NCBI GenBank assembly: GCA_937864225.1
Contig: CALMJK010000004.1
Location: 201,949 to 265,948, forward strand
DNA from: an uncultured bacterium
Lineage (GTDB): Bacteria > Krumholzibacteriota > Krumholzibacteriia > LZORAL124-64-63
Direction of reading: 5' to 3'
Length of the DNA: 64,000 nucleotides
Shown: positions 45,184-62,032 of the stretch, one piece after another
Layout: every line of letters begins with the position of its first letter
Position numbering within the stretch: position 1 is the stretch's first letter
Notes under the pieces: model-generated
What the model was told of the DNA's origin: nothing
Database searches by the model: none
What the model saw: only the letters and a program-made list of their open reading frames with translations
Made by a program: the position numbers and the translations under genes

Positions 45184-45384
45184 CTATTCCGGCAGGACCC
45201 CTTTACCAACGAAGAGGTTGTTGGCGTACATGTCCGTGTTGTAGGTCACGTAGTTCGTCGCGCCATCGACATCCGTCATGCACGGGCACACGCTGCCGCA
45301 CTTGCAGGCGCAGCTAGGCCTGTTGGGACCGCTGCCGGAGCCCTGCACGCCGGTCAGAACATCATCGCGAACGCGCTTGATCAC
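45184..45384 (-). CDS. Cys-rich RiPP precursor B (66 aa, GTG start)
   Basis: MIKRVRDDVLTGVQGSGSGPNRPSCACKCGSVCPCMTDVDGATNYVTYNTDMYANNLFVGKGVLPE; paralog of precursor A; SD GAGGAGGTGA. Confidence 0.8.
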   Translation of the reverse strand: MIKRVRDDVLTGVQGSGSGPNRPSCACKCGSVCPCMTDVDGATNYVTYNTDMYANNLFVGKGVLPE

Positions 45385-45459
45385 CTGGATCACCTCCTCT
45401 CGGTGGTATGATTTCTCATCGCGCACGTGAAACTTGGTGATTCAAGAATAAAAATGCGC

Positions 45460-45483
45460 GGCCCGGGCCGAGCGGCCCGGGCC
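45460..45483 (-). terminator. Intrinsic terminator between the two Cys-rich precursors
   Basis: GGCCCGGGCC-gagc-GGCCCGGGCC; T-rich on the minus strand downstream. Confidence 0.75.
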
Positions 45484-45496
45484 GTCCTTCAGGAGG

Positions 45497-45688
45497 CTAC
45501 ACTGGCGTAGCGGCGTTCACGTACAGATCCGGGTTATAAGCGACGAAGTTCGTGGCGCCGTCGACGCTCGTGGTGCACGGGCACACCGTGCCGCACTTGC
45601 AGGTTGGCGGCTGAACCGGTTTGCCTTTCTGCTCCTGGTACGAGCCATGCACAGCGGTCAGAACATCATCGCGAACGCGCTTGATCAT
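45497..45688 (-). CDS. Cys-rich RiPP precursor A (63 aa)
   Basis: MIKRVRDDVLTAVHGSYQEQKGKPVQPPTCKCGTVCPCTTSVDGATNFVAYNPDLYVNAATPV; SD AAGGGGGTGA. Confidence 0.8.
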   Translation of the reverse strand: MIKRVRDDVLTAVHGSYQEQKGKPVQPPTCKCGTVCPCTTSVDGATNFVAYNPDLYVNAATPV

Positions 45689-45760
45689 GACAATCACCCC
45701 CTTCGATAGTATGGTTTTTCATCCGAACGCGGCACATCATTTCGGCCGCGCACAAGCGAG

Positions 45761-48674: not shown

Positions 48675-48736
48675 TTGACCCGTGAGCGGGGCAGTTTTAC
48701 AATCCATGTGATCTTGACCGCCAAGTGCTTGGCGGT
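48675..48736 (+). promoter_or_regulatory. Promoter + 5'UTR hairpin of precursor 1
   Basis: TTGACC-N17-TACAAT; hairpin ACCGCCAA-GTGC-TTGGCGGT. Confidence 0.75.
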
Positions 48737-48775
48737 GCGTTGGCACGCGAGCAGAGGGAATTAAGGAGGAGCGAC

Positions 48776-48946
48776 ATGGGGCAGAATCATCCCAAGAAAC
48801 TGGTGCTCAGCCGTGAGACCGTACGCGATCTGAGCCAGAATGACATGGCGAATGTCGAGGGCGGGATCTTGAACAAGCCCGACACTGCGGGCAGGGGCTG
48901 CACTTTGCCCACGTACACCGGATATCCCTGCTACACCTGCTTCTAG
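48776..48946 (+). CDS. Lanthipeptide-like precursor 1 (56 aa)
   Basis: MGQNHPKKLVLSRETVRDLSQNDMANVEGG|ILNKPDTAGRGCTLPTYTGYPCYTCF; SD AAGGAGG. Confidence 0.88.
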   Translation: MGQNHPKKLVLSRETVRDLSQNDMANVEGGILNKPDTAGRGCTLPTYTGYPCYTCF

Positions 48947-49094
48947 GCCGCCGATCCTGGTCGCGCGTCAGGGCTGCTTGCTGCCGCGAAAGCAGCTTGA
49001 CGCAGGTCCGCGATATCTGTAGCGTGATACGAATCAGGCGGCAGATTCCCTTTTTGCCTGATCTTACAAGAACCAATTTTAAGGGAGGGGCACT

Positions 49095-49307
49095 ATGGGA
49101 CAGAATCAGCCGAAGAAGCTCGTGCTCAACCGCGAAACGGTTCGCAACCTGACCAAGAGCGATTTGGTGGGCATTGAGGGCGGAAAGAACAAGCCCACAC
49201 TCGTCACATGCGATACCGATACTTGTCACTGCGATACAACCGATCCTTCGTTACCAGATTGTCATATCTGCGAAAAAACTTGCGGCGGGAATTGCTACCT
49301 CCCGTAG
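49095..49307 (+). CDS. Lanthipeptide-like precursor 2 (70 aa)
   Basis: MGQNQPKKLVLNRETVRNLTKSDLVGIEGG|KNKPTLVTCDTDTCHCDTTDPSLPDCHICEKTCGGNCYLP. Confidence 0.9.
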   Translation: MGQNQPKKLVLNRETVRNLTKSDLVGIEGGKNKPTLVTCDTDTCHCDTTDPSLPDCHICEKTCGGNCYLP

Positions 49308-49324
49308 AGGCCAATCGTAATCGA

Positions 49325-49355
49325 GGGGGGCCTGCAGTTCTGGCAGGCCCCTCTT
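49325..49355 (+). terminator. Terminator-like hairpin between precursor 2 and lanC-1
   Basis: AGGGGGGCCTGC...GCAGGCCCCT-CTTT. Confidence 0.75.
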
Positions 49356-49401
49356 TCATTCTCGATCGCCACTTGCTATGACTCTTCTCGTGGAAGGAAC
49401 C

Positions 49402-50700
49402 ATGGCCACGCCGGTCTGGCGACCGATTCTGAGTGGCGAGGCCCTCGCGAGCGCACGGGAGGCCTTGACCGACATCACGGCGTCCCTGGCGGCGGGCGCG
49501 TCCCCTCGCGCGCGCGAGGACTGGTCGCCAGAGCTCGTGCGCGCGCGCGCGGCCACGTTGAGCGACGGCTTCGCGGGCCAGGCCCTGTACTGCGGCTATC
49601 TGCACCAGGCCGGCGGCGGACGGCAGGCCGCGGACCTGGGGTTGGCACTGCTGAATCGGGCCATCGAAACGGCCGGCGCCGAACGCATGCCGCCTGGGCT
49701 GTACGGCGGCTTTTCCGGGATTGCCTGGGTCGCCAATCATCTGGCGGGTCGGCTCTATGAGCCCGACGAGGACGATCCATACGAGGAAACCGACGGCGTT
49801 CTGCACGATTACGCGCGGCACGCCCGTTGGCCGTTCCAGTACGAGCTGCTCAACGGGCTGGTGGGCATCGGGGTGTATGCCCTGGAGCGGTTGCCGCGGG
49901 CGTCGGGACGGCAGTGTCTGGAAACGATCGTGGATCGTCTCGCCGAGGTCGCGCAGCGGGGTCGCGACGGGATCACCTGGCTGACTCCATCGGCGTTTGT
50001 CGGCGAGCATCGACTGGAGCAGGCGCCTCAGGGAGGGTACTACCTGGGGATGGCGCACGGCGTGCCTGGCGTCGTGTCGCTTTTGGCGGCGTTGTGGGCG
50101 GCGGATGTGGCCCGCGACCGGGTGGGTCCTCTGTTGGAGGGGGCGGTGTCGTGGCTCTTGGCGCAATCGCTGCCGGCAGGCTCTCTGTCGCGCTTCCCGC
50201 TCTGGTGGAGCGCGGAAACCAAGCCGACACCCTCGCGGTTGGCGTGGTGCTACGGGGATCCGGGGGTGGCGGCGTCGTTGTTGTGGGCGGCGGCGGCGCT
50301 GGAGCGTGATGACTGGCGCCGGGAGGGTTTGGCGACGGCGCTGGCGGCGGCACGGCGGCCGCTGGCGACGAGCGGGGTGCGCGACGCGGGTCTATGCCAC
50401 GGCAGCGCGGGAGTGGCGCACATCTTCAACCGTCTCTATCAGGCGACGGGCGAGGAAGAATTGGGCCGGGCGGCGTTGTTCTGGTACGAGCAGCTGCTGG
50501 CGGCGCGCACGCCGGGCGAGGGTCATGGCGGATACATGTTCGAACGGATCGGCGCGGATGGAGCTTTTCGGGTGTCGGATCCCGGTTTCCTGAACGGCAC
50601 CGTGGGCGTGGGGCTGGTGCTTTTGGCCGCGACCACGGCGGTGGAGCCGGCGTGGGATCGGGCGCTGCTGACCAGCGTCCCGCCGCGCGCTTGCGGATGA
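49402..50700 (+). CDS. lanC: LanC-like lanthipeptide cyclase 1
   Basis: GMAHGVPGV, WCYGDPGVA, LCHGSAGVAHIFNRLY (Zn ligands C, C, H and catalytic H); upstream ATG at 49378 also possible. Confidence 0.92.
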   Translation: MATPVWRPILSGEALASAREALTDITASLAAGASPRAREDWSPELVRARAATLSDGFAGQALYCGYLHQAGGGRQAADLGLALLNRAIETAGAERMPPGLYGGFSGIAWVANHLAGRLYEPDEDDPYEETDGVLHDYARHARWPFQYELLNGLVGIGVYALERLPRASGRQCLETIVDRLAEVAQRGRDGITWLTPSAFVGEHRLEQAPQGGYYLGMAHGVPGVVSLLAALWAADVARDRVGPLLEGAVSWLLAQSLPAGSLSRFPLWWSAETKPTPSRLAWCYGDPGVAASLLWAAAALERDDWRREGLATALAAARRPLATSGVRDAGLCHGSAGVAHIFNRLYQATGEEELGRAALFWYEQLLAARTPGEGHGGYMFERIGADGAFRVSDPGFLNGTVGVGLVLLAATTAVEPAWDRALLTSVPPRACG

Positions 50701-50758
50701 CGGCGTCCAAGGCCGGACCCAAGGGACGGGTCTGGGGCGACAGCGGGTCGGGGGCGAC

Positions 50759-50788
50759 TTGACCCTGGTGGTCCAGATCGTGTAGCAT
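50759..50788 (+). promoter_or_regulatory. Promoter of precursor 3
   Basis: TTGACC-N18-TAGCAT. Confidence 0.55.
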
Positions 50789-50859
50789 GGAAGGGGTCAA
50801 GCCGATAGGTTTCGGTCTGCTTGACGTCGCAAAAACTCCCTATTCCAAGGAGCGGCAGC

Positions 50860-51054
50860 ATGGGCAAGAATCATCCGGCGAAGCTTGTTCTGAACCGCGA
50901 GACGGTGCGCGATCTGACCAAGGACGTTCTGAGGAACGTCGAGGGCGGCAAGTGGGAAACAAGAGAAACCATGTCTTGTGCCTGTGACACAACCGATCCC
51001 TCGCTCCGTCCCTTGTGCCCCTTCTGCGAGTTGACCTGTGGGCCTTGCATCTAG
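50860..51054 (+). CDS. Lanthipeptide-like precursor 3 (64 aa)
   Basis: MGKNHPAKLVLNRETVRDLTKDVLRNVEGG|KWETRETMSCACDTTDPSLRPLCPFCELTCGPCI. Confidence 0.9.
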   Translation: MGKNHPAKLVLNRETVRDLTKDVLRNVEGGKWETRETMSCACDTTDPSLRPLCPFCELTCGPCI

Positions 51055-51076
51055 CAGAAATTGAGTCTGGTTTCTA

Positions 51077-51112
51077 GGGGCCTGTCGTGATGACAGGCCC
51101 CGGTTTTGTTTT
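51077..51112 (+). terminator. Terminator-like hairpin between precursor 3 and lanC-2
   Basis: Perfect GGGGCCTGTC-gtgat-GACAGGCCCC followed by ggttttgtttt. Confidence 0.85.
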
Positions 51113-52293
51113 CAGGGTTTGCGAGCGAGGGGTCTGCAGATGACTGAAGGGATGAACGTGTCGGCGTGGCGGCCACTTCTGCGGGGGGAAGCGCTGGAAC
51201 GGGCGCGCGCGGTGGTGGAGGAACTGGCGGTGGCGGTGTCATCGCCAGCGCCGCTGTGCGTGAACAAGGATTGGTCGCCGTCGTTCATCCGGGTGCGCGG
51301 GGCCTCGTTGGGCAGCGGTCTGGCAGGCCAGGCCCTTTTCTGCGGTTATCTGCATCAATGGGACAAGGAGGAGCGTTCCGCGGCGCTTGGGGTGGAGCTT
51401 TTGGATCGCGCCATCGAGGTGGTTTGCGGGGAGCGCATGGCGCCGACGCTGTACGGGGGTTTTCCGGGGATCGCGTGGGCGGGCAGCCATTTGGCGGGCC
51501 GTCTGTACGAGGCAGGCGAGGAGGACGCCTACGAGGAGACGGACGAGGTTCTGCGGGAGTACGTGCGGCAGCGGCGCTGGCCGTTCCACTACGATCTGAT
51601 CAGCGGTCTGGTGGGCATTGGGGTGTACGGGTTGGAGCGTCTGCCGCGGGCATCGGCGCGGCGGTGCCTGGAAGCGGTGGTGGAGCGTTTGGAGGAGGTC
51701 GCGGAGCGGGGCGCGGCGGGGATCACTTGGTCGACGCCGCCTGAGCTGCTCATCGAGGAGCGGCGGCAGCAGCATCCGCAAGGGTTGCACGATCTGGGGA
51801 TGGCACACGGGATCTCTGGGGTGGTGTCGCTGCTGGCGTGGTTGTGGTCGGCGCAGGTGTCGCGAGAGCGGGTGGGTCCGCTGTTGGAGGGTGCGGTGAC
51901 GTGGCTGTTGTCGCAGACGCTGCCGGCGGGTTCGGCGTCGCGTTATCCGAACTGGCGCGGGGCGGGGCAAGAGGCCGGGCCGTCGCGGTTGGCGTGGTGT
52001 TACGGAGATCCTGGGGTGGCGGCGTCGTTGTTGCGGGCGGCGGGTGCTCTGGATCGGGCGGACTGGCGGCGTGAGGGTATGGCGACGGCGCTGGGGGCGG
52101 CGCGGCGGCCGTTGGCGGCGAGCGGGGTGAAGGACGCGTGTTTGTGCCATGGGAGCGCGGGCTTGGCGCACATTTTCAACCGGCTGTACCAGGCGACGGG
52201 TGAGCAGGAGTTGGGCGCGGCGGCGCAGTTCTGGTACGAGCAGTTGCTGGCGGCGCGCGCGCCGGGCGAAGACCATGGCGGTTACAGGTTCGA
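51077..52293 (+). repeat. ~1.2 kb direct repeat, copy 1 (offset 3911 bp to copy 2 at 54988..56204)
   Basis: Apparently identical DNA; four overlapping alternative-frame ORFs are duplicated unchanged between the copies. Confidence 0.93.
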
Positions 52294-52477
52294 GCGGGTC
52301 GACCTGCCGGCCTCGGCCTATGCGCGGGGCGCCGAGGCCGTGTCCCATGTGCAGGACTCGAGCTTCCTGAGCGGCACCGCGGGGGTCGGCCTGGTGCTGT
52401 TGGCCGCGACCACGGCGGTGGAGCCGGCGTGGGACCGGGTGCTGTTGACCAACATTCCCGCCGGCGCGTGCCTGTAG
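51140..52477 (+). CDS. lanC: LanC-like lanthipeptide cyclase 2
   Basis: GMAHGISGV, WCYGDPGVA, LCHGSAGLAHIFNRLY. Confidence 0.92.
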   Translation: MTEGMNVSAWRPLLRGEALERARAVVEELAVAVSSPAPLCVNKDWSPSFIRVRGASLGSGLAGQALFCGYLHQWDKEERSAALGVELLDRAIEVVCGERMAPTLYGGFPGIAWAGSHLAGRLYEAGEEDAYEETDEVLREYVRQRRWPFHYDLISGLVGIGVYGLERLPRASARRCLEAVVERLEEVAERGAAGITWSTPPELLIEERRQQHPQGLHDLGMAHGISGVVSLLAWLWSAQVSRERVGPLLEGAVTWLLSQTLPAGSASRYPNWRGAGQEAGPSRLAWCYGDPGVAASLLRAAGALDRADWRREGMATALGAARRPLAASGVKDACLCHGSAGLAHIFNRLYQATGEQELGAAAQFWYEQLLAARAPGEDHGGYRFERVDLPASAYARGAEAVSHVQDSSFLSGTAGVGLVLLAATTAVEPAWDRVLLTNIPAGACL

Positions 52478-52525
52478 CAGCGCAGAGAAAAGATGCACTA
52501 CTCAATTCCGCACGTGGCTGATCTC

Positions 52526-52586
52526 TTGATTTTCGAAGCGTCGGTTCAGTAAGATCAAGTGTGATTGCCATCAATTCGTGTTGGCA
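52526..52586 (+). promoter_or_regulatory. Promoter + weaker 5'UTR hairpin of precursor 4
   Basis: TTGATT-N18-TAAGAT; TGCCA...TGGCA inverted repeat. Confidence 0.5.
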
Positions 52587-52619
52587 GGCCAGACGAAAAC
52601 CCTGTGCGAGGAGGGGGAA

Positions 52620-52778
52620 ATGGAACAGCGTAGCCCGAAAAGGATCGTGCTCAACCGCGAAACCGTCCGCGACCTGAGCCTCAATGAAATGGACAACATC
52701 GAGGGCGGCGGTCAGCGATACACATCGGGGAAGCTGTGTGACCTGAGCGCGACGGGGGATCCCTGCCGGATTTGCTGA
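52620..52778 (+). CDS. Lanthipeptide-like precursor 4 (52 aa)
   Basis: MEQRSPKRIVLNRETVRDLSLNEMDNIEGG|GQRYTSGKLCDLSATGDPCRIC. Confidence 0.88.
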   Translation: MEQRSPKRIVLNRETVRDLSLNEMDNIEGGGQRYTSGKLCDLSATGDPCRIC

Positions 52779-52869
52779 AGATGAGGCAGCAACCTGCTGT
52801 CTCTACCCTAACCGGCGTTTCGGCGCGGATCACGGCCGCAAACTGGGACATGATTCGCGGTGTCGTGCA

Positions 52870-52905
52870 GGAGGCCGGCGATGCATGCCGGCCTCCCGTA
52901 TTTTT
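52870..52905 (+). terminator. Intrinsic terminator after precursor 4
   Basis: GGAGGCCGGC-gatgcat-GCCGGCCTCC then cgtattttt. Confidence 0.9.
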
Positions 52906-52986
52906 CGCGCGACCTAAACGCAGCCGTGCAAATGCCGGTGGCGTGGTAGGAGATTGCGGATTCCCGTCATGCCGGCGGCGCTCGCC

Positions 52987-53047
52987 TTGACGCTTAAATC
53001 GGAACTCCATACAATCAGCGCGAGAGTGGCCGTCAAATGTTTGACGG
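52987..53047 (+). promoter_or_regulatory. Promoter + 5'UTR hairpin of precursor 5
   Basis: TTGACG-N17-TACAAT; CCGTCAAA-TG-TTTGACGG. Confidence 0.8.
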
Positions 53048-53086
53048 TCAAGCCAACATGAGGGCATCACAGTTTGAGGAGGCAAC

Positions 53087-53272
53087 ATGGGCCAGAGTCA
53101 TCCCAGGAAGCTAACGCTGAACCGCGAGACGGTTCGCGACCTGACCAAGGACGTTCTAGTGAGCATCGAAGGTGGCAAGAGCCTCACTGCCGGTCCAGCC
53201 TGTTATCCTTTCACGATTTTTACGACCGCTATTAGTGTTATTCCGTGCCGCATTTGCTGTTTGGATGATTAG
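53087..53272 (+). CDS. Lanthipeptide-like precursor 5 (61 aa)
   Basis: MGQSHPRKLTLNRETVRDLTKDVLVSIEGG|KSLTAGPACYPFTIFTTAISVIPCRICCLDD. Confidence 0.9.
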   Translation: MGQSHPRKLTLNRETVRDLTKDVLVSIEGGKSLTAGPACYPFTIFTTAISVIPCRICCLDD

Positions 53273-53431
53273 CCGTTGAGTCGAGAGTGGTCCTGACATG
53301 ACTCAGACGATCGGCGGTCGCGTGGACACTTAACGCCGCCAATTGTGGCGTTCTGAGATTGACTCTTAGGTCATGCCTCGCGATGTCTGCGAGTTGATTT
53401 GCGGAACTAGCATCGTCGCGTAGAGATTGAG
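53273..53431 (+). repeat. 3' cassette repeat after precursor 5 (similar to 53834..53995; partly to 54820..54985)
   Basis: Shared 'CCGTTGAGTCG...CTGACATG...GGCGGTCGCGTGGACACTTAACGCCGCCAATTG...ATGCCTCGCGATGTCTGCGAGTTGATTT.CGGAACTAGCATCG'. Confidence 0.85.
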
Positions 53432-53518
53432 AAAAACGCTGATCCTGCAGCTGGCCGCGCAAATATCCGGCGACATAGTATGACATTAAGAATTCCCTTC
53501 GTGCCTGCGGCGCTCGCC

Positions 53519-53581
53519 TTGACGCTTGAATCGGAAATCTGTACAATCGGCACGAGGATGGCCGTCAAATGCTTGGTGGCC
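53519..53581 (+). promoter_or_regulatory. Promoter + 5'UTR hairpin of precursor 6
   Basis: TTGACG-N17-TACAAT; GGCCGTCAA-ATGC-TTGGTGGCC (with GU pairs). Confidence 0.8.
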
Positions 53582-53619
53582 ACGCCAACATGTGTGGGCA
53601 TCGGAGTTAAGGAGGAGAC

Positions 53620-53808
53620 ATGGGCCAGAATCACCCGAAGAAGCTTGTTCTGAGCCGTGAGACGGTTCGCGATCTGACCAAAGATGTTCTGATGGGCATC
53701 GAGGGAGGCAAAAACAAACCGTACACTGCCGGTGAAGTCTGTGTGGCTTACACGGAACAGACGACCGATCCAACGAATTTCTTCCCGTGCAACATTTGCT
53801 GTTTGTGA
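53620..53808 (+). CDS. Lanthipeptide-like precursor 6 (62 aa)
   Basis: MGQNHPKKLVLSRETVRDLTKDVLMGIEGG|KNKPYTAGEVCVAYTEQTTDPTNFFPCNICCL. Confidence 0.9.
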   Translation: MGQNHPKKLVLSRETVRDLTKDVLMGIEGGKNKPYTAGEVCVAYTEQTTDPTNFFPCNICCL

Positions 53809-53833
53809 CATTTGTCAGAAGTGGGGCGCTGCA

Positions 53834-53995
53834 CCGTTGAGTCGGAAGTGATCCTGACATGGCTGCGACTGTCGGCGGTCGCGTGGACACTTAACGCCGC
53901 CAATTGCGGTTTTCTGAGATCGATTCTTCGGTAATGCCTCGCGATGTCTGCGAGTTGATTTTCGGAACTAGCATCGCCGAGTAAGGATTGATCCT
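53834..53995 (+). repeat. 3' cassette repeat after precursor 6
   Basis: Close copy of 53273..53431. Confidence 0.85.
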
Positions 53996-54002
53996 GGTTC
54001 TT

Positions 54003-54027
54003 GGGGCCTGCCCCAGTGACAGGCCCC
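54003..54027 (+). terminator. Terminator-like hairpin between precursors 6 and 7
   Basis: GGGGCCTG-ccccagtga-CAGGCCCC, no strong T-tract. Confidence 0.6.
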
Positions 54028-54030
54028 GCC

Positions 54031-54092
54031 TTGACGGGTGAGATCCAAGAGTCATACAATAGACGCCAAGGCGACCACCGGCTGCTTGGTGG
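54031..54092 (+). promoter_or_regulatory. Promoter + 5'UTR hairpin of precursor 7
   Basis: TTGACG-N18-TACAAT; CCACCGG-CTGC-TTGGTGG. Confidence 0.75.
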
Positions 54093-54131
54093 CCGAGCTA
54101 ACAGGCGAGCATCGTGGTTAAGGAGGGCGAC

Positions 54132-54326
54132 ATGGGTCAGAATCATCCCAGGAAGCTGACGCTAAGCCGCGAGACCGTCCGCGACCTGACCAAGGACGCT
54201 CTGGGTGGCATTGGGGGCGGCGATAACAAGCCGTACACGGCCAGGTGCACCAATCAAACCACCGCTCAGACAATTTACCCCTGCCTGAGATGCTGCGTCG
54301 CAATCATTTCGGAAGCGGAATGTTGA
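54132..54326 (+). CDS. Lanthipeptide-like precursor 7 (64 aa)
   Basis: MGQNHPRKLTLSRETVRDLTKDALGGIGGG|DNKPYTARCTNQTTAQTIYPCLRCCVAIISEAEC. Confidence 0.88.
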   Translation: MGQNHPRKLTLSRETVRDLTKDALGGIGGGDNKPYTARCTNQTTAQTIYPCLRCCVAIISEAEC

Positions 54327-54357
54327 GGCCTTGATTCGAGGATACCGCTGACAACAA

Positions 54358-54386
54358 GGGGGCTGGTCGCCATCGCGTCGGCCCCC
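54358..54386 (+). terminator. Terminator-like hairpin after precursor 7
   Basis: GGGGGCTG...CGGCCCCC then atgtttcgtt. Confidence 0.65.
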
Positions 54387-54537
54387 ATGTTTCGTTCAGC
54401 GACTCGCTTGCCTGCCCGCGCTGCGAGTTGTCGGCCGCTTTTCTTTCGACTGAAAGCTATGCCCTCAGCGGCGCCAGAGAAATCGCCGGCGCCATAGTGG
54501 GAGATTGCGCATTCCCCTGACGCCAACTGCGCTCGCC

Positions 54538-54600
54538 TTGACGCTTGAATCAAAGCTCCATACAATCAGCATGCAGCGGGCCGTCAAATGATTGGCGGCC
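54538..54600 (+). promoter_or_regulatory. Promoter + 5'UTR hairpin of precursor 8
   Basis: TTGACG-N17-TACAAT; GGCCGTCAA-ATGA-TTGGCGGCC. Confidence 0.8.
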
Positions 54601-54637: not shown

Positions 54638-54805
54638 ATGGGCCAGAGTCATCTCAGGAAACTGACGCTAAGCCGCGAGACGGTTCGCGACCTGACCAAG
54701 GACGTTCTGGAGAGCGTGGAGGGGGGCAAGAATAAGCCGTACACTGCCGGTAACAATTGTTTCGATACCACAGATCCTACGATTATTCCGTGCCTTACTT
54801 GCTGA
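54638..54805 (+). CDS. Lanthipeptide-like precursor 8 (55 aa)
   Basis: MGQSHLRKLTLSRETVRDLTKDVLESVEGG|KNKPYTAGNNCFDTTDPTIIPCLTC. Confidence 0.9.
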   Translation: MGQSHLRKLTLSRETVRDLTKDVLESVEGGKNKPYTAGNNCFDTTDPTIIPCLTC

Positions 54806-54987
54806 GCGTAGATCCTCAGCCGTTGAGTCGAGAGTGATTCTGGCATAGCTGAGACGGCCGGCTGTCGCGTGAATACTTGAAGCCGCCACTGGTGGCTTTG
54901 CGCGGCCGGCTCGTCGGGGACGCCTGGCGGTGCTCGCGAAATGACTTGCGAAATTTGCTTCGCTGCATAGAGACTGATCGTGGTTTT

Positions 54988-55023
54988 GGGGCCTGTCGTG
55001 ATGACAGGCCCCGGTTTTGTTTT
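54988..55023 (+). terminator. Terminator-like hairpin between precursor 8 and lanC-3
   Basis: GGGGCCTGTC-gtgat-GACAGGCCCC then ggttttgtttt; same as 51077. Confidence 0.85.
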
Positions 55024-56204
55024 CAGGGTTTGCGAGCGAGGGGTCTGCAGATGACTGAAGGGATGAACGTGTCGGCGTGGCGGCCACTTCTGCGGGGGGA
55101 AGCGCTGGAACGGGCGCGCGCGGTGGTGGAGGAACTGGCGGTGGCGGTGTCATCGCCAGCGCCGCTGTGCGTGAACAAGGATTGGTCGCCGTCGTTCATC
55201 CGGGTGCGCGGGGCCTCGTTGGGCAGCGGTCTGGCAGGCCAGGCCCTTTTCTGCGGTTATCTGCATCAATGGGACAAGGAGGAGCGTTCCGCGGCGCTTG
55301 GGGTGGAGCTTTTGGATCGCGCCATCGAGGTGGTTTGCGGGGAGCGCATGGCGCCGACGCTGTACGGGGGTTTTCCGGGGATCGCGTGGGCGGGCAGCCA
55401 TTTGGCGGGCCGTCTGTACGAGGCAGGCGAGGAGGACGCCTACGAGGAGACGGACGAGGTTCTGCGGGAGTACGTGCGGCAGCGGCGCTGGCCGTTCCAC
55501 TACGATCTGATCAGCGGTCTGGTGGGCATTGGGGTGTACGGGTTGGAGCGTCTGCCGCGGGCATCGGCGCGGCGGTGCCTGGAAGCGGTGGTGGAGCGTT
55601 TGGAGGAGGTCGCGGAGCGGGGCGCGGCGGGGATCACTTGGTCGACGCCGCCTGAGCTGCTCATCGAGGAGCGGCGGCAGCAGCATCCGCAAGGGTTGCA
55701 CGATCTGGGGATGGCACACGGGATCTCTGGGGTGGTGTCGCTGCTGGCGTGGTTGTGGTCGGCGCAGGTGTCGCGAGAGCGGGTGGGTCCGCTGTTGGAG
55801 GGTGCGGTGACGTGGCTGTTGTCGCAGACGCTGCCGGCGGGTTCGGCGTCGCGTTATCCGAACTGGCGCGGGGCGGGGCAAGAGGCCGGGCCGTCGCGGT
55901 TGGCGTGGTGTTACGGAGATCCTGGGGTGGCGGCGTCGTTGTTGCGGGCGGCGGGTGCTCTGGATCGGGCGGACTGGCGGCGTGAGGGTATGGCGACGGC
56001 GCTGGGGGCGGCGCGGCGGCCGTTGGCGGCGAGCGGGGTGAAGGACGCGTGTTTGTGCCATGGGAGCGCGGGCTTGGCGCACATTTTCAACCGGCTGTAC
56101 CAGGCGACGGGTGAGCAGGAGTTGGGCGCGGCGGCGCAGTTCTGGTACGAGCAGTTGCTGGCGGCGCGCGCGCCGGGCGAAGACCATGGCGGTTACAGGT
56201 TCGA
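54988..56204 (+). repeat. ~1.2 kb direct repeat, copy 2
   Basis: See 51077..52293. Confidence 0.93.
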
Positions 56205-56400
56205 AGTCAGGGAGTGGGAGGAAACCAGTCGGGTGCCGGACTCGAGCTTCCTCAGCGGCACGGCGGGGGTGGGCCTGGCGCTGTTGGCCGCGACCACGGC
56301 GGTGGAGCCGGCGTGGGATCGGGCGCTGCTGACGAACATTCCCCCGCTGGCCGCCGCCGGTTCGGTCCGCGGCGCCGGCGACGCCGGGCGCGCGCCTTGA
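55051..56400 (+). CDS. lanC: LanC-like lanthipeptide cyclase 3
   Basis: Identical to LanC-2 up to GGYRFE, then divergent; same zinc-site motifs. Confidence 0.92.
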   Translation: MTEGMNVSAWRPLLRGEALERARAVVEELAVAVSSPAPLCVNKDWSPSFIRVRGASLGSGLAGQALFCGYLHQWDKEERSAALGVELLDRAIEVVCGERMAPTLYGGFPGIAWAGSHLAGRLYEAGEEDAYEETDEVLREYVRQRRWPFHYDLISGLVGIGVYGLERLPRASARRCLEAVVERLEEVAERGAAGITWSTPPELLIEERRQQHPQGLHDLGMAHGISGVVSLLAWLWSAQVSRERVGPLLEGAVTWLLSQTLPAGSASRYPNWRGAGQEAGPSRLAWCYGDPGVAASLLRAAGALDRADWRREGMATALGAARRPLAASGVKDACLCHGSAGLAHIFNRLYQATGEQELGAAAQFWYEQLLAARAPGEDHGGYRFEVREWEETSRVPDSSFLSGTAGVGLALLAATTAVEPAWDRALLTNIPPLAAAGSVRGAGDAGRAP

Positions 56401-56418: not shown

Positions 56419-59400
56419 CTACGCCGGCGGCGTGAGCGTTGTCCGGCGCTTCTTGCCTGCCCGTGCCAGCAGCGAGTAATAGTGTTGTTCGAGGAAGCAG
56501 TAGATGACCGCTTCCTGGGCGCGCGCCGCGTCGCGCGACATGCGGTTGGCGTGCATGTGCAAGAAGCTGGCGGCGATTTCCGGCAGAGGCGTGGCCAGGG
56601 TCCCCTTCTTTGCCAGGTCCGTCAGTTGTTGGAGCGCCGACCTGCAGCGCTCGTTTCGGCGCTTCAAGATCTCGATCCCGGGCCAGAGTGAATGATCGGC
56701 GCCGCAGGCGGGATCCAGGAGTCTGGACAGCGCTTCTCGTTCGGCGCGGTAGCGGCCCAGGATCTGTTTCTTGAACGTTCCTTCCAAGGAGAACTCGCGC
56801 GCGTAGCTCTCGGACAGCCTGGTCAAGAGCGCTGATTTTCCTTCCAGATCGAAATCGAACGCGTCGAGCATCATGTCCATGCCCTTGACCGTCAGGCGCC
56901 AGCGCTCATCCGCCCCTTCGTCCCCAAAGAGCATCCCGAGGATCTCCAGCACGGCCTCGCTGTCGTGATGGAAGATCTCCTCGCACGGTTCGATGCCGCC
57001 GTTGCCTCCATAACGATTCATTTCCCGCACGTACGTATCGATCTGGAATCTCCACAGCAACTCTCCGGTCAACAGCGGCTGGACCGCGACGCGGAGGGCG
57101 GGCAAGACCCGCGCCAGGAGCGCGCCTGGCTCGCCGCGGAAGCGCACGCGCACGTGGCTTTGGGGATCGGCATAACGGATGAAGAACCAAGCCTGGCATT
57201 CTCCGGACCGCATGAACTCGCCGGCCAGGGGGCGGACGATCCGGCACAACAGGCGGTCGGCCACCGCGGGACCACAGTAGAGTTTCACGTAGAGCCATTC
57301 GGAGCCCGGCGGAAAGACCGTGGGCACGGACGGAGCCGTGTCTTTGCGGGCGGCTCGCGCAGCGGTCGCGGCGGCATTGTTGACTTCTGCGTTTGACGCC
57401 TTTGTTGCTGCATCGGGCGGGCGGCGCACCATGGGGATGATCACTTCGTTGCAGAAGCGGCCTTCCGGGCCCTCGACCGCCAAGCAGTCCGGACCTGGGA
57501 GCATCTCGCGGAGAACGAAGGCGGGCCGGCCCTTGATCGCGCTGTGGAAGGCCAACACGCTCAGAGGGTTCTCGAAATCCACGCACAGCACGTTGTCGCG
57601 GTCGGCAAGTCCCACCCATCTCGGGAGCGCCCGTCGCTCCTTCCACAACAAGATCTCCCGCACGAGTTGCGCCCCGGAGGCGTCGGCCGCGTCTTTGAGC
57701 TCGCTGCTCTGGACGTTCCAAATGGCGGGCGCGAGAACCACGGCGCCGACCCTCACGCGCGGGAGACGGGGCTGGCTGGCCAGTTGTCCCCAATCCCAGC
57801 CGAGTCCGCTCGTGACGCCCTGGACCTGCAGGGCCCCCAGGAACTGATAGACCTTCATCGTCCGCAGCGACATGTTGTGCGCGGTCGTCAGGCGCGGCAC
57901 GATTTCTCGCCCCAGGGCGGGAGCGCGCAGGACCACCCGTTCGCCTGCCACGCCCACGGTCAAGTCGGCCAGAGTCAGGATCCGCTCGGGGGGTGCGCCC
58001 GAACGCCCCAGGAAAGCGAGTTCGTGACCCCGCAGAAGTGGGCGCGCCAGGACGTTGCCGATCCGCCCGTCAGACTGGTGCACGATCTCGCAGTACACCG
58101 CCTCCGGTCGCAGGCTTTCCTCTTGGGCGAGATGGCGCCGGACATGATCGAGCAGCACCGGGTCCCCATGGCAAAAACGGCCCAGCAGGCGGGCCCCAGA
58201 CGGCCCGCTGAGACCCGACAGGAGGAACCGCGGGGCGCGGGGATTGCCGGCTTCGGCGGGGAGCACGGCGCCCATGACCTGAAAGGCGTCGGGAAGCGGC
58301 GGCCTGCCCCGGGGGCGATACTTGGCGGTTTCAACGGGCTCGAGCCGCAATTCGTCGGCGCCCGCGGCCAGCGCTTCAGCGAGCTTCCACTGGATGAAGT
58401 CGCCGGCTCCGGAGGCCGCGACCTGCCTGTCGCGGTCGGCGGGGGGAAAATCCAGCCCGGCCAGCAGCGGGCTGGCTTCCGCGCCCGGCGCGCGGTTAAC
58501 GGCGAAGCCGATCCCCACGTCCTCGTCCAGGACTTGCAGCAGAGGCACCTGGCGATCCCCGTAGCGATCCTCGAAATCCTTGCGGAAGGAGGCGAGGGGG
58601 TCGGGCGGCTTGGCCGAGAGATTCTCGAGCACCGTCAACGCGTCGAGGATCGCTTCCGGCAAGCCGCTCTCCAGAGTCAGGTCGGTCGCCGGCTTGATCA
58701 TGTCCACCTGGAACAGGCGATCGAGATTGGCGTCGGCGGGCAGGCTCTCGATTTCGGCGGCCACCGCGCGGTACTGCGCGGGATTCCGGCCCAGCCCCGC
58801 TTGATCCAGTTTCTTCAGTTCAGCGCGGACCCATGCCAGCTTTTCGCGCGCCTCTCTGGCGCTTGGCTTGTCATGGAGCTGGTCCAGGAGGCCATCGATC
58901 GATTCCGGTCCGGTGAGCGTGGGGGCCAGGTCGGGCACGAGGATCTGGGCGTCGATGACTTGATCGACGTAAGCCAGCGCTTCCTCGGGGGTGATGGCCT
59001 CGCTGACGAGGGCGGCGGCCAGCTCCGCGCGTCGCGACCCTTGGCGAGCGCGGTGGATCGTGTCCCGCAGGGGCCCGTCCGCGGTCGCGGCGACGAGGAA
59101 GTAGGAGCGGTGACGTCCCTTGAGGCGGGCCTCGGCGTAACGGAGGGTCTCGCCGAACTCGAACAGGCTCGAGTTGGGGAAATAGCGCAGCTCCTGACGA
59201 AAATCCGCGCTTTGGCTGAGTCCGTCCACGAGGGCGGTCAGATAGTCCATGTCCAATCGCGTGTGGCGGACATACGCTCCTCGCGGGCCGAGCCGGAGCC
59301 GATCGCTTTTTCCGAAAACCCCCACCGAGCCGCCGGCGTACAACCCGAAGGGCGTACAGCGAGCGGCCATGCGCTGGAAGTACTTGACCACGGCGTTCTG

Positions 59401-59700
59401 GACCCGTTCGCCCCGCTCGCCGTCGGGATCCTTCTCCCAAGCGGGCAGACTTTCCTCCAGGCTCGGCGAGGCCACGAACAGCGCCTCGCGGATCTCCGGC
59501 CGGCGGCAAGCAAGGGCCAGGCGTGCTCGGAGCTTCGCCAGATCCTCCTTGTAATGTCGCGCGAATGCTTCGGGATCGGCCAGGGCGCGACTGCACGCGG
59601 TGCCCTCCGCCCACGTCAGGAGTTCGTCGAAAGGCAGCAGGGGAGTGCGCAGCGCGAAGAAGCCTGACGCGCAGAAATCCTTGGCCGCCAACTCTTGCAT
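56419..59700 (-). CDS. lanB: Full-length class I lanthipeptide dehydratase (LanB: N-terminal glutamylation region + SpaB-C-type elimination domain)
   Basis: FALRTPLLPFDELLTW, KYFQRMAARCTPFGLYAGGSVG, WLYVKLYCG, AWFFIRYADPQSHVRVRF, DTYVREMNRYGG, EIFHHDSEAVLEIL. Confidence 0.93.
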   Translation of the reverse strand: MQELAAKDFCASGFFALRTPLLPFDELLTWAEGTACSRALADPEAFARHYKEDLAKLRARLALACRRPEIREALFVASPSLEESLPAWEKDPDGERGERVQNAVVKYFQRMAARCTPFGLYAGGSVGVFGKSDRLRLGPRGAYVRHTRLDMDYLTALVDGLSQSADFRQELRYFPNSSLFEFGETLRYAEARLKGRHRSYFLVAATADGPLRDTIHRARQGSRRAELAAALVSEAITPEEALAYVDQVIDAQILVPDLAPTLTGPESIDGLLDQLHDKPSAREAREKLAWVRAELKKLDQAGLGRNPAQYRAVAAEIESLPADANLDRLFQVDMIKPATDLTLESGLPEAILDALTVLENLSAKPPDPLASFRKDFEDRYGDRQVPLLQVLDEDVGIGFAVNRAPGAEASPLLAGLDFPPADRDRQVAASGAGDFIQWKLAEALAAGADELRLEPVETAKYRPRGRPPLPDAFQVMGAVLPAEAGNPRAPRFLLSGLSGPSGARLLGRFCHGDPVLLDHVRRHLAQEESLRPEAVYCEIVHQSDGRIGNVLARPLLRGHELAFLGRSGAPPERILTLADLTVGVAGERVVLRAPALGREIVPRLTTAHNMSLRTMKVYQFLGALQVQGVTSGLGWDWGQLASQPRLPRVRVGAVVLAPAIWNVQSSELKDAADASGAQLVREILLWKERRALPRWVGLADRDNVLCVDFENPLSVLAFHSAIKGRPAFVLREMLPGPDCLAVEGPEGRFCNEVIIPMVRRPPDAATKASNAEVNNAAATAARAARKDTAPSVPTVFPPGSEWLYVKLYCGPAVADRLLCRIVRPLAGEFMRSGECQAWFFIRYADPQSHVRVRFRGEPGALLARVLPALRVAVQPLLTGELLWRFQIDTYVREMNRYGGNGGIEPCEEIFHHDSEAVLEILGMLFGDEGADERWRLTVKGMDMMLDAFDFDLEGKSALLTRLSESYAREFSLEGTFKKQILGRYRAEREALSRLLDPACGADHSLWPGIEILKRRNERCRSALQQLTDLAKKGTLATPLPEIAASFLHMHANRMSRDAARAQEAVIYCFLEQHYYSLLARAGKKRRTTLTPPA

Positions 59701-59791
59701 CCTTCGAAGCTGGTTGTGAGAGAAACCGGCACAGCCCCGGCCACCGGCGGAACGCGCCAGGGGCCTTGATCTCCGCTCTTTCCGGCCCGGT

Positions 59792-62032
59792 TCAGGTCGC
59801 GCTGGTGTTCTTCTCCGATGACTGCGCCATGACCAGCTCGGCGTACAGCCCATTGGCTCGCATCAGTTCGGCGTGAGTGCCCTGCTCGACGAGCCGGCCC
59901 TTCTCCAACACCAGGATCACGTCCGCGTCGCGCACCGTGCTGAGGCGATGCGCCACCACGATGCGCGTACAGCCCAGACCGGCCAGGGCGGCCTGGATCT
60001 GCGCCTCGATCTGGGCGTCCAGGGAGCTGGTGGCCTCGTCCAGGAAAAGGATGGCCGGATCGTGCGACAGGGCGCGGGCCAGAGCGATCCGCTGGCGTTG
60101 GCCGCCCGAGAGCGACAGGCCGCCTTCGGAAAGGATCGTGTTGTAGCCCAGGGGCATGGCCATGATCTCGTCGTGGATGTGGGCCAGCTTAGCGGCGACC
60201 TCGATGTCGTCCCGCGTGAGCTCGGGATCGGCCAGGGCGATGTTCTCGCGGATCGAGCCGCCGAACAGGTGCGTGTGCTGCGTGACCACGCCCAGTTGCG
60301 AACGCACGCTGCGGGCGTCGAGGCCCGTCAGGTCGATGCCGTCGTAGAGGACGCGCCCCTTGGTCGGCTGGTACAGCCCGAGCATGAGGTTGGCCAGCGT
60401 GGTCTTGCCCGCGGCCGAGCGGCCGACGATGGCCACCATCTGTCCCGGCGTGATGTCCAGGGAGATTTCCTCGACGGCTGGCGCGCTGTTGATCGCGTAC
60501 TGGAACGTCACGTTTTCGCAGCGGATCCCGCCCTGGAGCCGGGGGGCGTTGACGACCTTCTCGGGATCCTGCTCCTTGGGCGTGGACAGCACGTCGTCCA
60601 GGCGGTCGACGTAGCTGCCCAACTGCTGGAAGGACATGGCGGTGCCCACCAGCGAGGAAAGCGGGGTCAAGAAACCCTGGGCCAGGGCGTTGAGCGCCAG
60701 CATCGTGCCCAAGCTCAGGTGGCCCTGGATCACCAGCCAGCCGCCGGTGAGCATGATCACCAGCGGTGACACGAAGCTCAAGCTGCCGATGACCGACTGG
60801 ACGAGCGCGTCCAGACGCCCGCGGTTGATGCTGACATTGAGGACGTCGACGAACAGGTGCGACCAGTGCTCCAGGGCGCGGGGCTCGGCTCCGGCCGCCT
60901 TGAGGGTCTCGATGCCGGTGAACATCTGCACTTCGTAGCCTTGAGAGCGGGCCTCCTTGGCCAGGTTCTCGGTCATCAGGTCCCGGATCTTGTGGCGGGA
61001 GAACAGGAAGACCACGACGCGCAAGAAGCCCAGCAGCAGCACCAGCCCGCCCAGGAGAGGACTGATCAGCATCAGCAGCACGAGATAGGACAGCAGCATG
61101 ATGCTGTCCAGGGCGCCCGACAATGCGCTGGAGGTGATGAGTTCCCTCACGACCGCGTTGCTGTTCAGACGCATGATCAGGTCGCCCGCCGACCTCGTCT
61201 GGAAGAATGGGTACGGGAGATCGAACATGTGCTCGAGAAAGTCGAGCGTCATGCGCGCGTCCAGTTCGGTGCGCAGGTGCAGCATCAGGAAGGCGCGCAG
61301 GTATGACAGCAGGAAGTTGAAGACCAGCAGCCCGGCGAAGCCGACCGCCAGGATCTGCATCAGTCCGATGTCGCTGCGGGGGATAACCCGGTCGACCAGG
61401 GCGCCGGTCAGGATCGGCAGTCCCAGCCCCACGAGTTGGGCCATGGCCGTCAGCAGGAGAATCCGACCCAGGAGCCCCGAACGGGACAGCACGCGGCGCA
61501 CATAGCCCCAGACCGGGCGCGCGGCCTCTTGGCCGGTGGCGAACGTCTCCAGCGGGTCGAAGATCAGGGCCACGCCCGTGAAGTAGCGGCCGAATTCTTC
61601 GAACGACACGCGGCGGGGACCCAACGCGGGGTCCACCAGTTTGATGTGCTTCTTGTCTTGGCCCTCGTAGACGACGAAGTGATCGAAGCCCCAGTGCAGG
61701 ATGGACGCGGGGGGCAGGTAGTCCAGGTCCGCGACCTCCAGCGTGACGCCTCGGCCCCGCAGGTTGTAGCGCCGCGCGGCCTGCACGAGGTCCAGGGCGC
61801 TGGCGCCGTCGCGGCCGGCTCCCACGCTGTCCCGCACGGTGTCCAGCCGCACGCGCCTGCCGTGGTAGCCCAGCACCATGGCCAGGCAGGCCGAACCGCA
61901 GTCGGCGGCGGTGTGCTGCTGGACGTAGGGGATCTTGCCGCCGCTGCCGCCGCGCTCCAGCCTGCGCAGCGCCGGGAAACGCTCCAGCAACCGTTGGCCG
62001 CGTCGCGGCGGCGCCTCATCCGGAGAAGCCAC
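59792..62032 (-). CDS. lanT: C39 peptidase-containing ABC transporter (bacteriocin/lanthipeptide export and leader cleavage)
   Basis: PYVQQHTAADCGSACLAMVLGYHG (catalytic Cys), FDHFVVYEG (His), DPALGPRRVSFEEF; Walker A GRSAAGKTT, LSGGQRQRIALARAL, ILFLDEATSSLD. Confidence 0.95.
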   Translation of the reverse strand: MASPDEAPPRRGQRLLERFPALRRLERGGSGGKIPYVQQHTAADCGSACLAMVLGYHGRRVRLDTVRDSVGAGRDGASALDLVQAARRYNLRGRGVTLEVADLDYLPPASILHWGFDHFVVYEGQDKKHIKLVDPALGPRRVSFEEFGRYFTGVALIFDPLETFATGQEAARPVWGYVRRVLSRSGLLGRILLLTAMAQLVGLGLPILTGALVDRVIPRSDIGLMQILAVGFAGLLVFNFLLSYLRAFLMLHLRTELDARMTLDFLEHMFDLPYPFFQTRSAGDLIMRLNSNAVVRELITSSALSGALDSIMLLSYLVLLMLISPLLGGLVLLLGFLRVVVFLFSRHKIRDLMTENLAKEARSQGYEVQMFTGIETLKAAGAEPRALEHWSHLFVDVLNVSINRGRLDALVQSVIGSLSFVSPLVIMLTGGWLVIQGHLSLGTMLALNALAQGFLTPLSSLVGTAMSFQQLGSYVDRLDDVLSTPKEQDPEKVVNAPRLQGGIRCENVTFQYAINSAPAVEEISLDITPGQMVAIVGRSAAGKTTLANLMLGLYQPTKGRVLYDGIDLTGLDARSVRSQLGVVTQHTHLFGGSIRENIALADPELTRDDIEVAAKLAHIHDEIMAMPLGYNTILSEGGLSLSGGQRQRIALARALSHDPAILFLDEATSSLDAQIEAQIQAALAGLGCTRIVVAHRLSTVRDADVILVLEKGRLVEQGTHAELMRANGLYAELVMAQSSEKNTSAT

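What the first reader, a model, noticed from the sequence alone, without database searches (positions are those of the whole stretch)
48675..54600. Conserved 5'UTR hairpin with compensatory substitutions at fixed distance from the -10 box of precursor genes
p1 CCGCCAA-gtgc-TTGGCGG, p5 CCGTCAA-atgt-TTGACGG, p6 CCGTCAA-atgc-TTGGTGG, p7 CCACCGG-ctgc-TTGGTGG, p8 CCGTCAA-atga-TTGGCGG. Pairing is kept by double changes or GU wobbles while primary sequence varies, with the stem starting about 14 nt after the -10 hexamer, i.e. near the 5' end of the mRNA. This suggests a selected RNA structure (5' stabiliser or regulatory/protein-binding element) rather than only a DNA operator.
Basis: partly seen in the sequence, partly recalled or inferred. 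Interest (0 to 1): 0.78.

Follow-up and report, generated by a model that had tools for sequence, protein, structure and literature searches.

The report
5' mRNA hairpins on lanthipeptide precursors
Most peptide-antibiotic precursor genes in this bacterium begin their message with a small hairpin just after the predicted transcription start, with different letters each time but the same shape and position, most likely a cap that keeps these messages long-lived so that plenty of precursor is made.

Summary
In p1, p5, p6, p7 and p8 a stem starts exactly 14 nt after the -10 box. So do lanthipeptide-type precursors on other contigs and the radical-SAM precursor in this window.

Across 18 precursor promoters, folding energy dips sharply about 8 nt after the -10, near the predicted transcription start (Stouffer z -7.4; -5.2 with paralogues collapsed). 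For 41 other strong promoters of the same genome it is -1.2.

Classical covariation is weak: five paralogues, four pairs with double changes, 29/500 shuffles as good. The sequence motif occurs perfectly only in this cluster. The strong evidence is repeated placement of structure without sequence, which argues for RNA over one shared DNA operator.

Best reading: a 5'-proximal mRNA stabiliser of the ompA/papA/vacA kind on short precursor transcripts, some ending at intrinsic terminators, so that precursor is made in excess. The genome has RNase E/G; an RNase J model found no match. Start site, half-life and function are untested. Likely a new member of a known kind, unusual for its systematic use on RiPP precursors.

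The parts
48675..48703 (+). p1 promoter TTGACC-N17-TACAAT
48716..48736 (+). p1 5' hairpin (A)CCGCCAA-gtgc-TTGGCGG(T)
48776..48946 (+). p1 precursor, LxLxRETVRxL leader
   Evidence: NF038153 above cut-off
49033..49062 (+). p2 5' hairpin ATCAGGC(GG)...GCCTGAT, 7 nt after -10 TAGCGT
49095..49307 (+). p2 precursor
50796..50825 (+). p3 5' hairpin GTCAAGC...GCTTGAC, 7 nt after -10 TAGCAT
50860..51054 (+). p3 precursor
51077..51101 (+). intrinsic-terminator-like site between p3 and lanC2
52565..52587 (+). p4 5' hairpin TTGCCA-N11-TGGCAG, 9 nt after -10 TAAGAT
52620..52778 (+). p4 precursor
52870..52896 (+). intrinsic-terminator-like site after p4
53027..53050 (+). p5 5' hairpin TGGCCGTCAA-atgt-TTGACGGTCA
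53087..53272 (+). p5 precursor
53559..53582 (+). p6 5' hairpin TGGCCGTCAA-atgc-TTGGTGGCCA
53620..53808 (+). p6 precursor
54075..54092 (+). p7 5' hairpin CCACCGG-ctgc-TTGGTGG (weakest of the set; alternative folds compete)
54132..54326 (+). p7 precursor
54578..54600 (+). p8 5' hairpin GGGCCGTCAA-atga-TTGGCGGCC
54638..54805 (+). p8 precursor
54986..55014 (+). intrinsic-terminator-like site between p8 and lanC3
49378..50700 (+). lanC1 (LANC_like)
51119..52477 (+). lanC2 (LANC_like)
54877..56400 (+). lanC3 (LANC_like; ORF as listed, true start probably near 55051)
56419..59853 (-). lanB-type dehydratase (Lant_dehydr_N and Lant_dehydr_C)
59792..62032 (-). C39-peptidase ABC transporter
45727..45751 (-). 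5' hairpin GCGCGGC-N11-GCCGCGT of the radical-SAM precursor, 9 nt after its -10 TACGTT
45497..45688 (-). Cys-rich precursor next to the radical SAM gene

Best explanation
The hairpins are 5'-proximal mRNA stem-loops that protect precursor transcripts from 5'-end-dependent decay. Each precursor gene has its own strong sigma-70-type promoter. Transcription is predicted to start 6-8 nt after the -10, so the message begins with 0-6 free nucleotides and then the hairpin. An open stretch of lower G+C with a strong Shine-Dalgarno sequence follows. Several precursor units end in an intrinsic-terminator-like site before lanC, which would give a short message with a hairpin at both ends and more precursor than enzyme. 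Shown by computation: position, structure beyond chance, absence from other strong promoters, open ribosome site, an RNase E/G gene in the genome. Inferred: the start site, the slower decay, and the purpose (excess precursor).
For: Folding energy of 30-nt windows dips to a mean of -12.2 kcal/mol at 8 nt after the -10, against about -3 to -4 just upstream and around the ribosome site. Eighteen precursor promoters: mean z -1.73, Stouffer -7.4 (-5.2 with p5-p8 left out). Forty-one other strong promoters of the genome: mean z about -0.2; Mann-Whitney p 0.0013, or 0.012 with paralogues collapsed. 14/18 against 13/41 fold at -9 kcal/mol or better. Hairpin sequences are unrelated between p1/p5-p8, p2, p3, p4, the C6 and C3 precursors and the radical-SAM precursor. 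The radical-SAM enzyme gene, with a good promoter in the same cluster, has only a -0.8 kcal/mol hairpin. The ribosome-site region is less structured than in controls (p 0.0004, through lower G+C). RNase E/G is present, no RNase J-type match. Precedents: 5' stem-loops stabilise bla, papA and ompA messages (PMC3997798); the vacA stem-loop at +4 to +30 raises half-life, which falls on disruption and returns with a mirror stem (PMC4843948).
Against: No start-site or half-life data exist. In p1 and p5-p8 about 4-6 unpaired nucleotides may precede the stem, which would weaken a block of RppH. In p1, p6 and p7 longer folds compete with the hairpin. Four of 18 precursors (C6:43966, C18:135534, C6:116610, p4) do not reach -9 kcal/mol at that offset. 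Sense and antisense strands fold about equally well (-200.5 against -193.0), so fold energy alone does not exclude a DNA palindrome. Two other RiPP-like families of the genome (loci L107, L114) have strong promoters without a clear hairpin.
Confidence: 0.58

Rival explanations
1. The palindromes of p1 and p5-p8 are a DNA operator for a dimeric repressor that sits just downstream of the start of transcription and co-regulates these genes.
For: CCGTCAA-N4-TTGACGG is a good 18-bp dyad at a classical repressor position, in a fixed register of 14 nt in all five. Both strands fold about equally. Covariation is statistically weak.
Against: p2, p3, p4 and the other clusters have hairpins in the same place with unrelated sequence, which one operator cannot explain. 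The pattern occurs perfectly only in this cluster: four sites, plus p7 with two mismatches, with the remaining two-mismatch sites near the level of the backward control. No Pfam regulator was seen among the ORFs tested at 44.3-64 kb; 36-44 kb was not scanned. Deviations from perfect pairing inside the core stem are all G-U on the sense strand.
Confidence: 0.13
2. The hairpin is a landing site for an RNA-binding protein or small RNA that coordinates precursor expression in response to a signal.
For: Placement is systematic on precursor genes. The loops of p1 and p5-p8 all read NUGN.
Against: Loop and stem sequences are not shared with p2-p4 or other clusters. No Rfam match at E up to 1. The ribosome site is open, not sequestered.
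Confidence: 0.13
3. The structure acts on transcription itself, for example promoter escape or early pausing through the nascent RNA, rather than on decay.
For: The stem lies within the first ~30 transcribed nucleotides at a fixed distance from the -10.
Against: Other strong promoters of the genome do without it. No experiment speaks for it.
Confidence: 0.08
4. No function: chance palindromes in a G+C-rich genome, multiplied by tandem duplication.
For: p5, p6 and p8 share long similar leader sequence. G+C-rich leaders often fold: 13/41 controls reach -9 kcal/mol.
Against: Collapsing p1/p5-p8 to one still gives Stouffer -5.2 against -1.2 for controls. The summed energy lies 8 sd below shuffles.
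Confidence: 0.08

Closest known systems
5'-terminal stem-loop mRNA stabilisers of ompA, papA and engineered bla (E. coli), vacA (H. pylori)
   Same: A simple stem-loop within the first ~30 nt, ribosome site left open, on messages needed in quantity; a host with RNase E/G.
   Different: Here it recurs on many separate precursor genes with unrelated stems in one genome; start site and half-life are unmeasured; some stems may begin 4-6 nt in.
Class I lanthipeptide clusters
   Same: LanB-type dehydratase, LanC cyclases, C39 peptidase transporter, NF038153-like leader with GG; terminators after precursor genes.
   Different: Eight precursors each with its own promoter and 5' hairpin, and three LanC genes. 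I found no report of 5' hairpins on such precursors in the searched papers, which is not a full survey.
Regulatory 5' RNA elements (riboswitches, thermometers, attenuators)
   Same: Structured leader upstream of a coding gene.
   Different: No Rfam match, no sequestered Shine-Dalgarno, no terminator/anti-terminator pair seen in the leader.

Membership tests
5'-proximal mRNA-stabilising stem-loop | Stem-loop at or within a few nt of the transcript's 5' end | tested here: inconclusive
   Stem starts 7-14 nt after the -10, about +1 to +7 by prediction; start site not mapped.
5'-proximal mRNA-stabilising stem-loop | Structure kept while sequence varies | tested here: met
   Unrelated stems at the same place in p1/p5-p8, p2, p3, p4 and other clusters; within p1/p5-p8 covariation only weak.
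5'-proximal mRNA-stabilising stem-loop | Ribosome site not sequestered by the stem | tested here: met
   Mean -3.8 against -7.2 kcal/mol in controls 40-70 nt after the -10.
5'-proximal mRNA-stabilising stem-loop | Host has a 5'-end-sensing decay enzyme (RNase E/G or RNase J) | tested here: met
   RNase_E_G match E 5.7e-105; no RNase J-type match. RppH not searched.
5'-proximal mRNA-stabilising stem-loop | Breaking the stem shortens half-life, restoring it rescues | not testable with these tools
   Needs bench work.
DNA operator of a cluster regulator | Shared sequence at all co-regulated promoters | tested here: not met
   Only p1 and p5-p8 share it; p2-p4 do not.
DNA operator of a cluster regulator | Regulator gene nearby | tested here: inconclusive
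   None among ORFs tested at 44.3-64 kb; 36-44 kb not scanned.
Known Rfam RNA element | Match to a covariance model | tested here: not met
   No match up to E 1 in 44-60 kb.
Class I lanthipeptide cluster | LanB dehydratase, LanC cyclase, leader peptides | tested here: met

The most novel reading that the evidence does not exclude
RiPP precursor genes in this lineage repeatedly and independently acquired 5'-proximal hairpins as a standard part of the gene unit (promoter, hairpin, open ribosome site, precursor, terminator), so that the ratio of precursor to enzyme is set by mRNA lifetime rather than only by promoter strength or a regulator.
Probability: 0.35. Interest if true: 0.6.

Novelty: new member of a known kind. 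Interest (0 to 1): 0.42.

Why it matters
Precursor peptides must be made in excess over their modifying enzymes, and how clusters achieve this is rarely examined at the RNA level. A sequence-free hairpin rule at the 5' end gives a testable answer, a simple marker for finding short precursor genes, and a part for expressing such clusters in laboratory hosts.

Tried and rejected
Relatives in other genomes: only a few distant leader matches in the class and one in a Thermoanaerobaculia MAG. The MAG locus has an 11-bp hairpin (shuffle p 0.017) and G046 a hairpin further upstream (p 0.017), but two G043 loci show nothing beyond chance (p 0.18 and 0.57) and promoters there are unclear. Conservation outside the genome is therefore unproven.

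The covariance model hit 14 other genomes at E up to 0.01. The two best hits that I could inspect lie inside apparent coding sequence, so I treat them as chance.

Sense-against-antisense folding was meant to separate RNA from DNA palindromes but is nearly a tie. The openness of the ribosome site is explained by base composition, not by avoidance of folding beyond composition (z 0.17 against -0.14). Precursors whose promoter I could not assign (C6:15118, C6:18854, C6:54889) or that sit second in an operon were left out.

Full report
What is there. The window is G000:C4:201949-265948 of a 2.87-Mb, 21-contig genome. At 48.7-62 kb lies a class I-type lanthipeptide cluster: eight precursor genes p1-p8 with a common LxLxRETVRxL...EGG leader, three LanC genes, one LanB-type dehydratase and a C39 peptidase transporter. 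A radical SAM gene with two Cys-rich precursors lies beside it at 45.2-47.4 kb.

Check of the observation. The five quoted hairpins are present, and each stem begins exactly 14 nt after the -10 hexamer. Within p1/p5-p8, 92% of cells pair and four of ten pairs show a change on both sides, but 29 of 500 shuffles do as well; slid controls give 0-2 such pairs. With five sequences, three of them tandem copies with the same 5' arm, covariation is suggestive only.

p2, p3 and p4 also have hairpins, 7-9 nt after their -10 boxes, with unrelated sequences. The same holds for precursors with similar leaders elsewhere: C6:13903 (GGCGCCGA-ttga-TCGGCGCC), C6:74883 (CGCCATCG...CGATGGCG), C6:73330 (TTCGGCG...CGCCGAG) and C3:320888, and for the radical-SAM precursor in this window. 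The -10-to-start distance is 64-77 nt in 14 of the 18 promoters; the other four are 86, 90, 100 and 106 nt.

Statistics. Sliding 30-nt folds over 14 promoters show a dip at 4-12 nt after the -10, deepest at 8 nt with a mean of -12.2 kcal/mol. Against dinucleotide shuffles the sum is -170.8 versus -101.9, sd 8.6. The offset of 8 was chosen from this scan, a small penalty. As a genome-wide control I took all TTGAC-N18/19-TANANT sites (48 sites, against 3 for the reversed pattern), fetched those outside the known precursors and analysed 41: mean z -0.2, Stouffer -1.2, against -7.4 for 18 precursors and -5.2 with p5-p8 dropped. The control set even contains two other RiPP-like families (loci L107, L114). 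The radical-SAM enzyme gene, with a good promoter in the same cluster, has no real hairpin.

RNA or DNA. The motif CCRYCAANTGNTTGRYGG has perfect matches only in this cluster, and the covariance model finds nothing convincing elsewhere. One operator cannot explain hairpins of unrelated sequence in the same place. Inside the core stems every imperfect pair is G-U on the transcript strand, in keeping with RNA, but the numbers are small, and overall sense and antisense energies are nearly equal. I therefore call RNA likely, not proven.

Mechanism. The stem is predicted to start at about +1 to +7. The ribosome site downstream is open. The genome has RNase E/G, and an RNase J model found no match. 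Terminator-like sites follow p3, p4 and p8. 5' hairpins impede RppH and stabilise messages such as bla; papA and ompA are cited with them (PMC3997798). In vacA a stem at +4 to +30 raises half-life, disruption lowers it and a mirrored stem restores it (PMC4843948). The simplest reading is a 5' stabiliser giving short, long-lived precursor messages. The steps from structure to half-life and to precursor excess are inferred.

Limits. p7's stem is weak, and p1, p6 and p7 have competing long folds. Four of 18 precursors lack a strong compact hairpin at that offset; C6:43966 instead has a 10-bp perfect inverted repeat with a loop of about 41 nt. Evidence from other genomes is thin. The searched literature showed no report of such hairpins on RiPP precursors, but that library lacks most subscription journals.

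Noticed in passing
window 51077-52293 and 54988-56204: A 1217-bp block (terminator plus most of lanC2 / lanC3) is 100% identical between the two copies, while the 3' ends differ: very recent duplication or gene conversion, or an assembly effect.
   Followed up: partly
window 45184-45697 (-): Two paralogous Cys-rich peptides (CKCGxVCPC...) beside a CcpM/RumMC-like radical SAM gene look like a second, different RiPP system in the same window.
   Followed up: partly
locus L114 (G000:C6:228190-230100): Two small ORFs with RKYPSD-type cores resemble microviridin-like graspetide precursors; each has a strong promoter with only a 4-bp GCAC-GGTT-GTG(C/T) hairpin 7 nt after the -10.
   Followed up: no
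locus L107 (G000:C5:236200-237340): Two related Cys-rich small ORFs (MFYLIDP...) with TTGACA/TAAAAT promoters may be another RiPP or secreted peptide family without a clear 5' hairpin.
   Followed up: no
locus L059 (G000:C6:43841-43966): Precursor leader with a perfect 10-bp inverted repeat CTTGGAAATT...AATTTCCAAG enclosing about 41 nt, starting about 11 nt after the -10: an outsized version of the same arrangement.
   Followed up: partly
G000, whole genome: 22 leader-family matches on four contigs plus one on C18; of 81 other genomes of the class only two have any match, so this species is unusually rich in such precursors.
   Followed up: no
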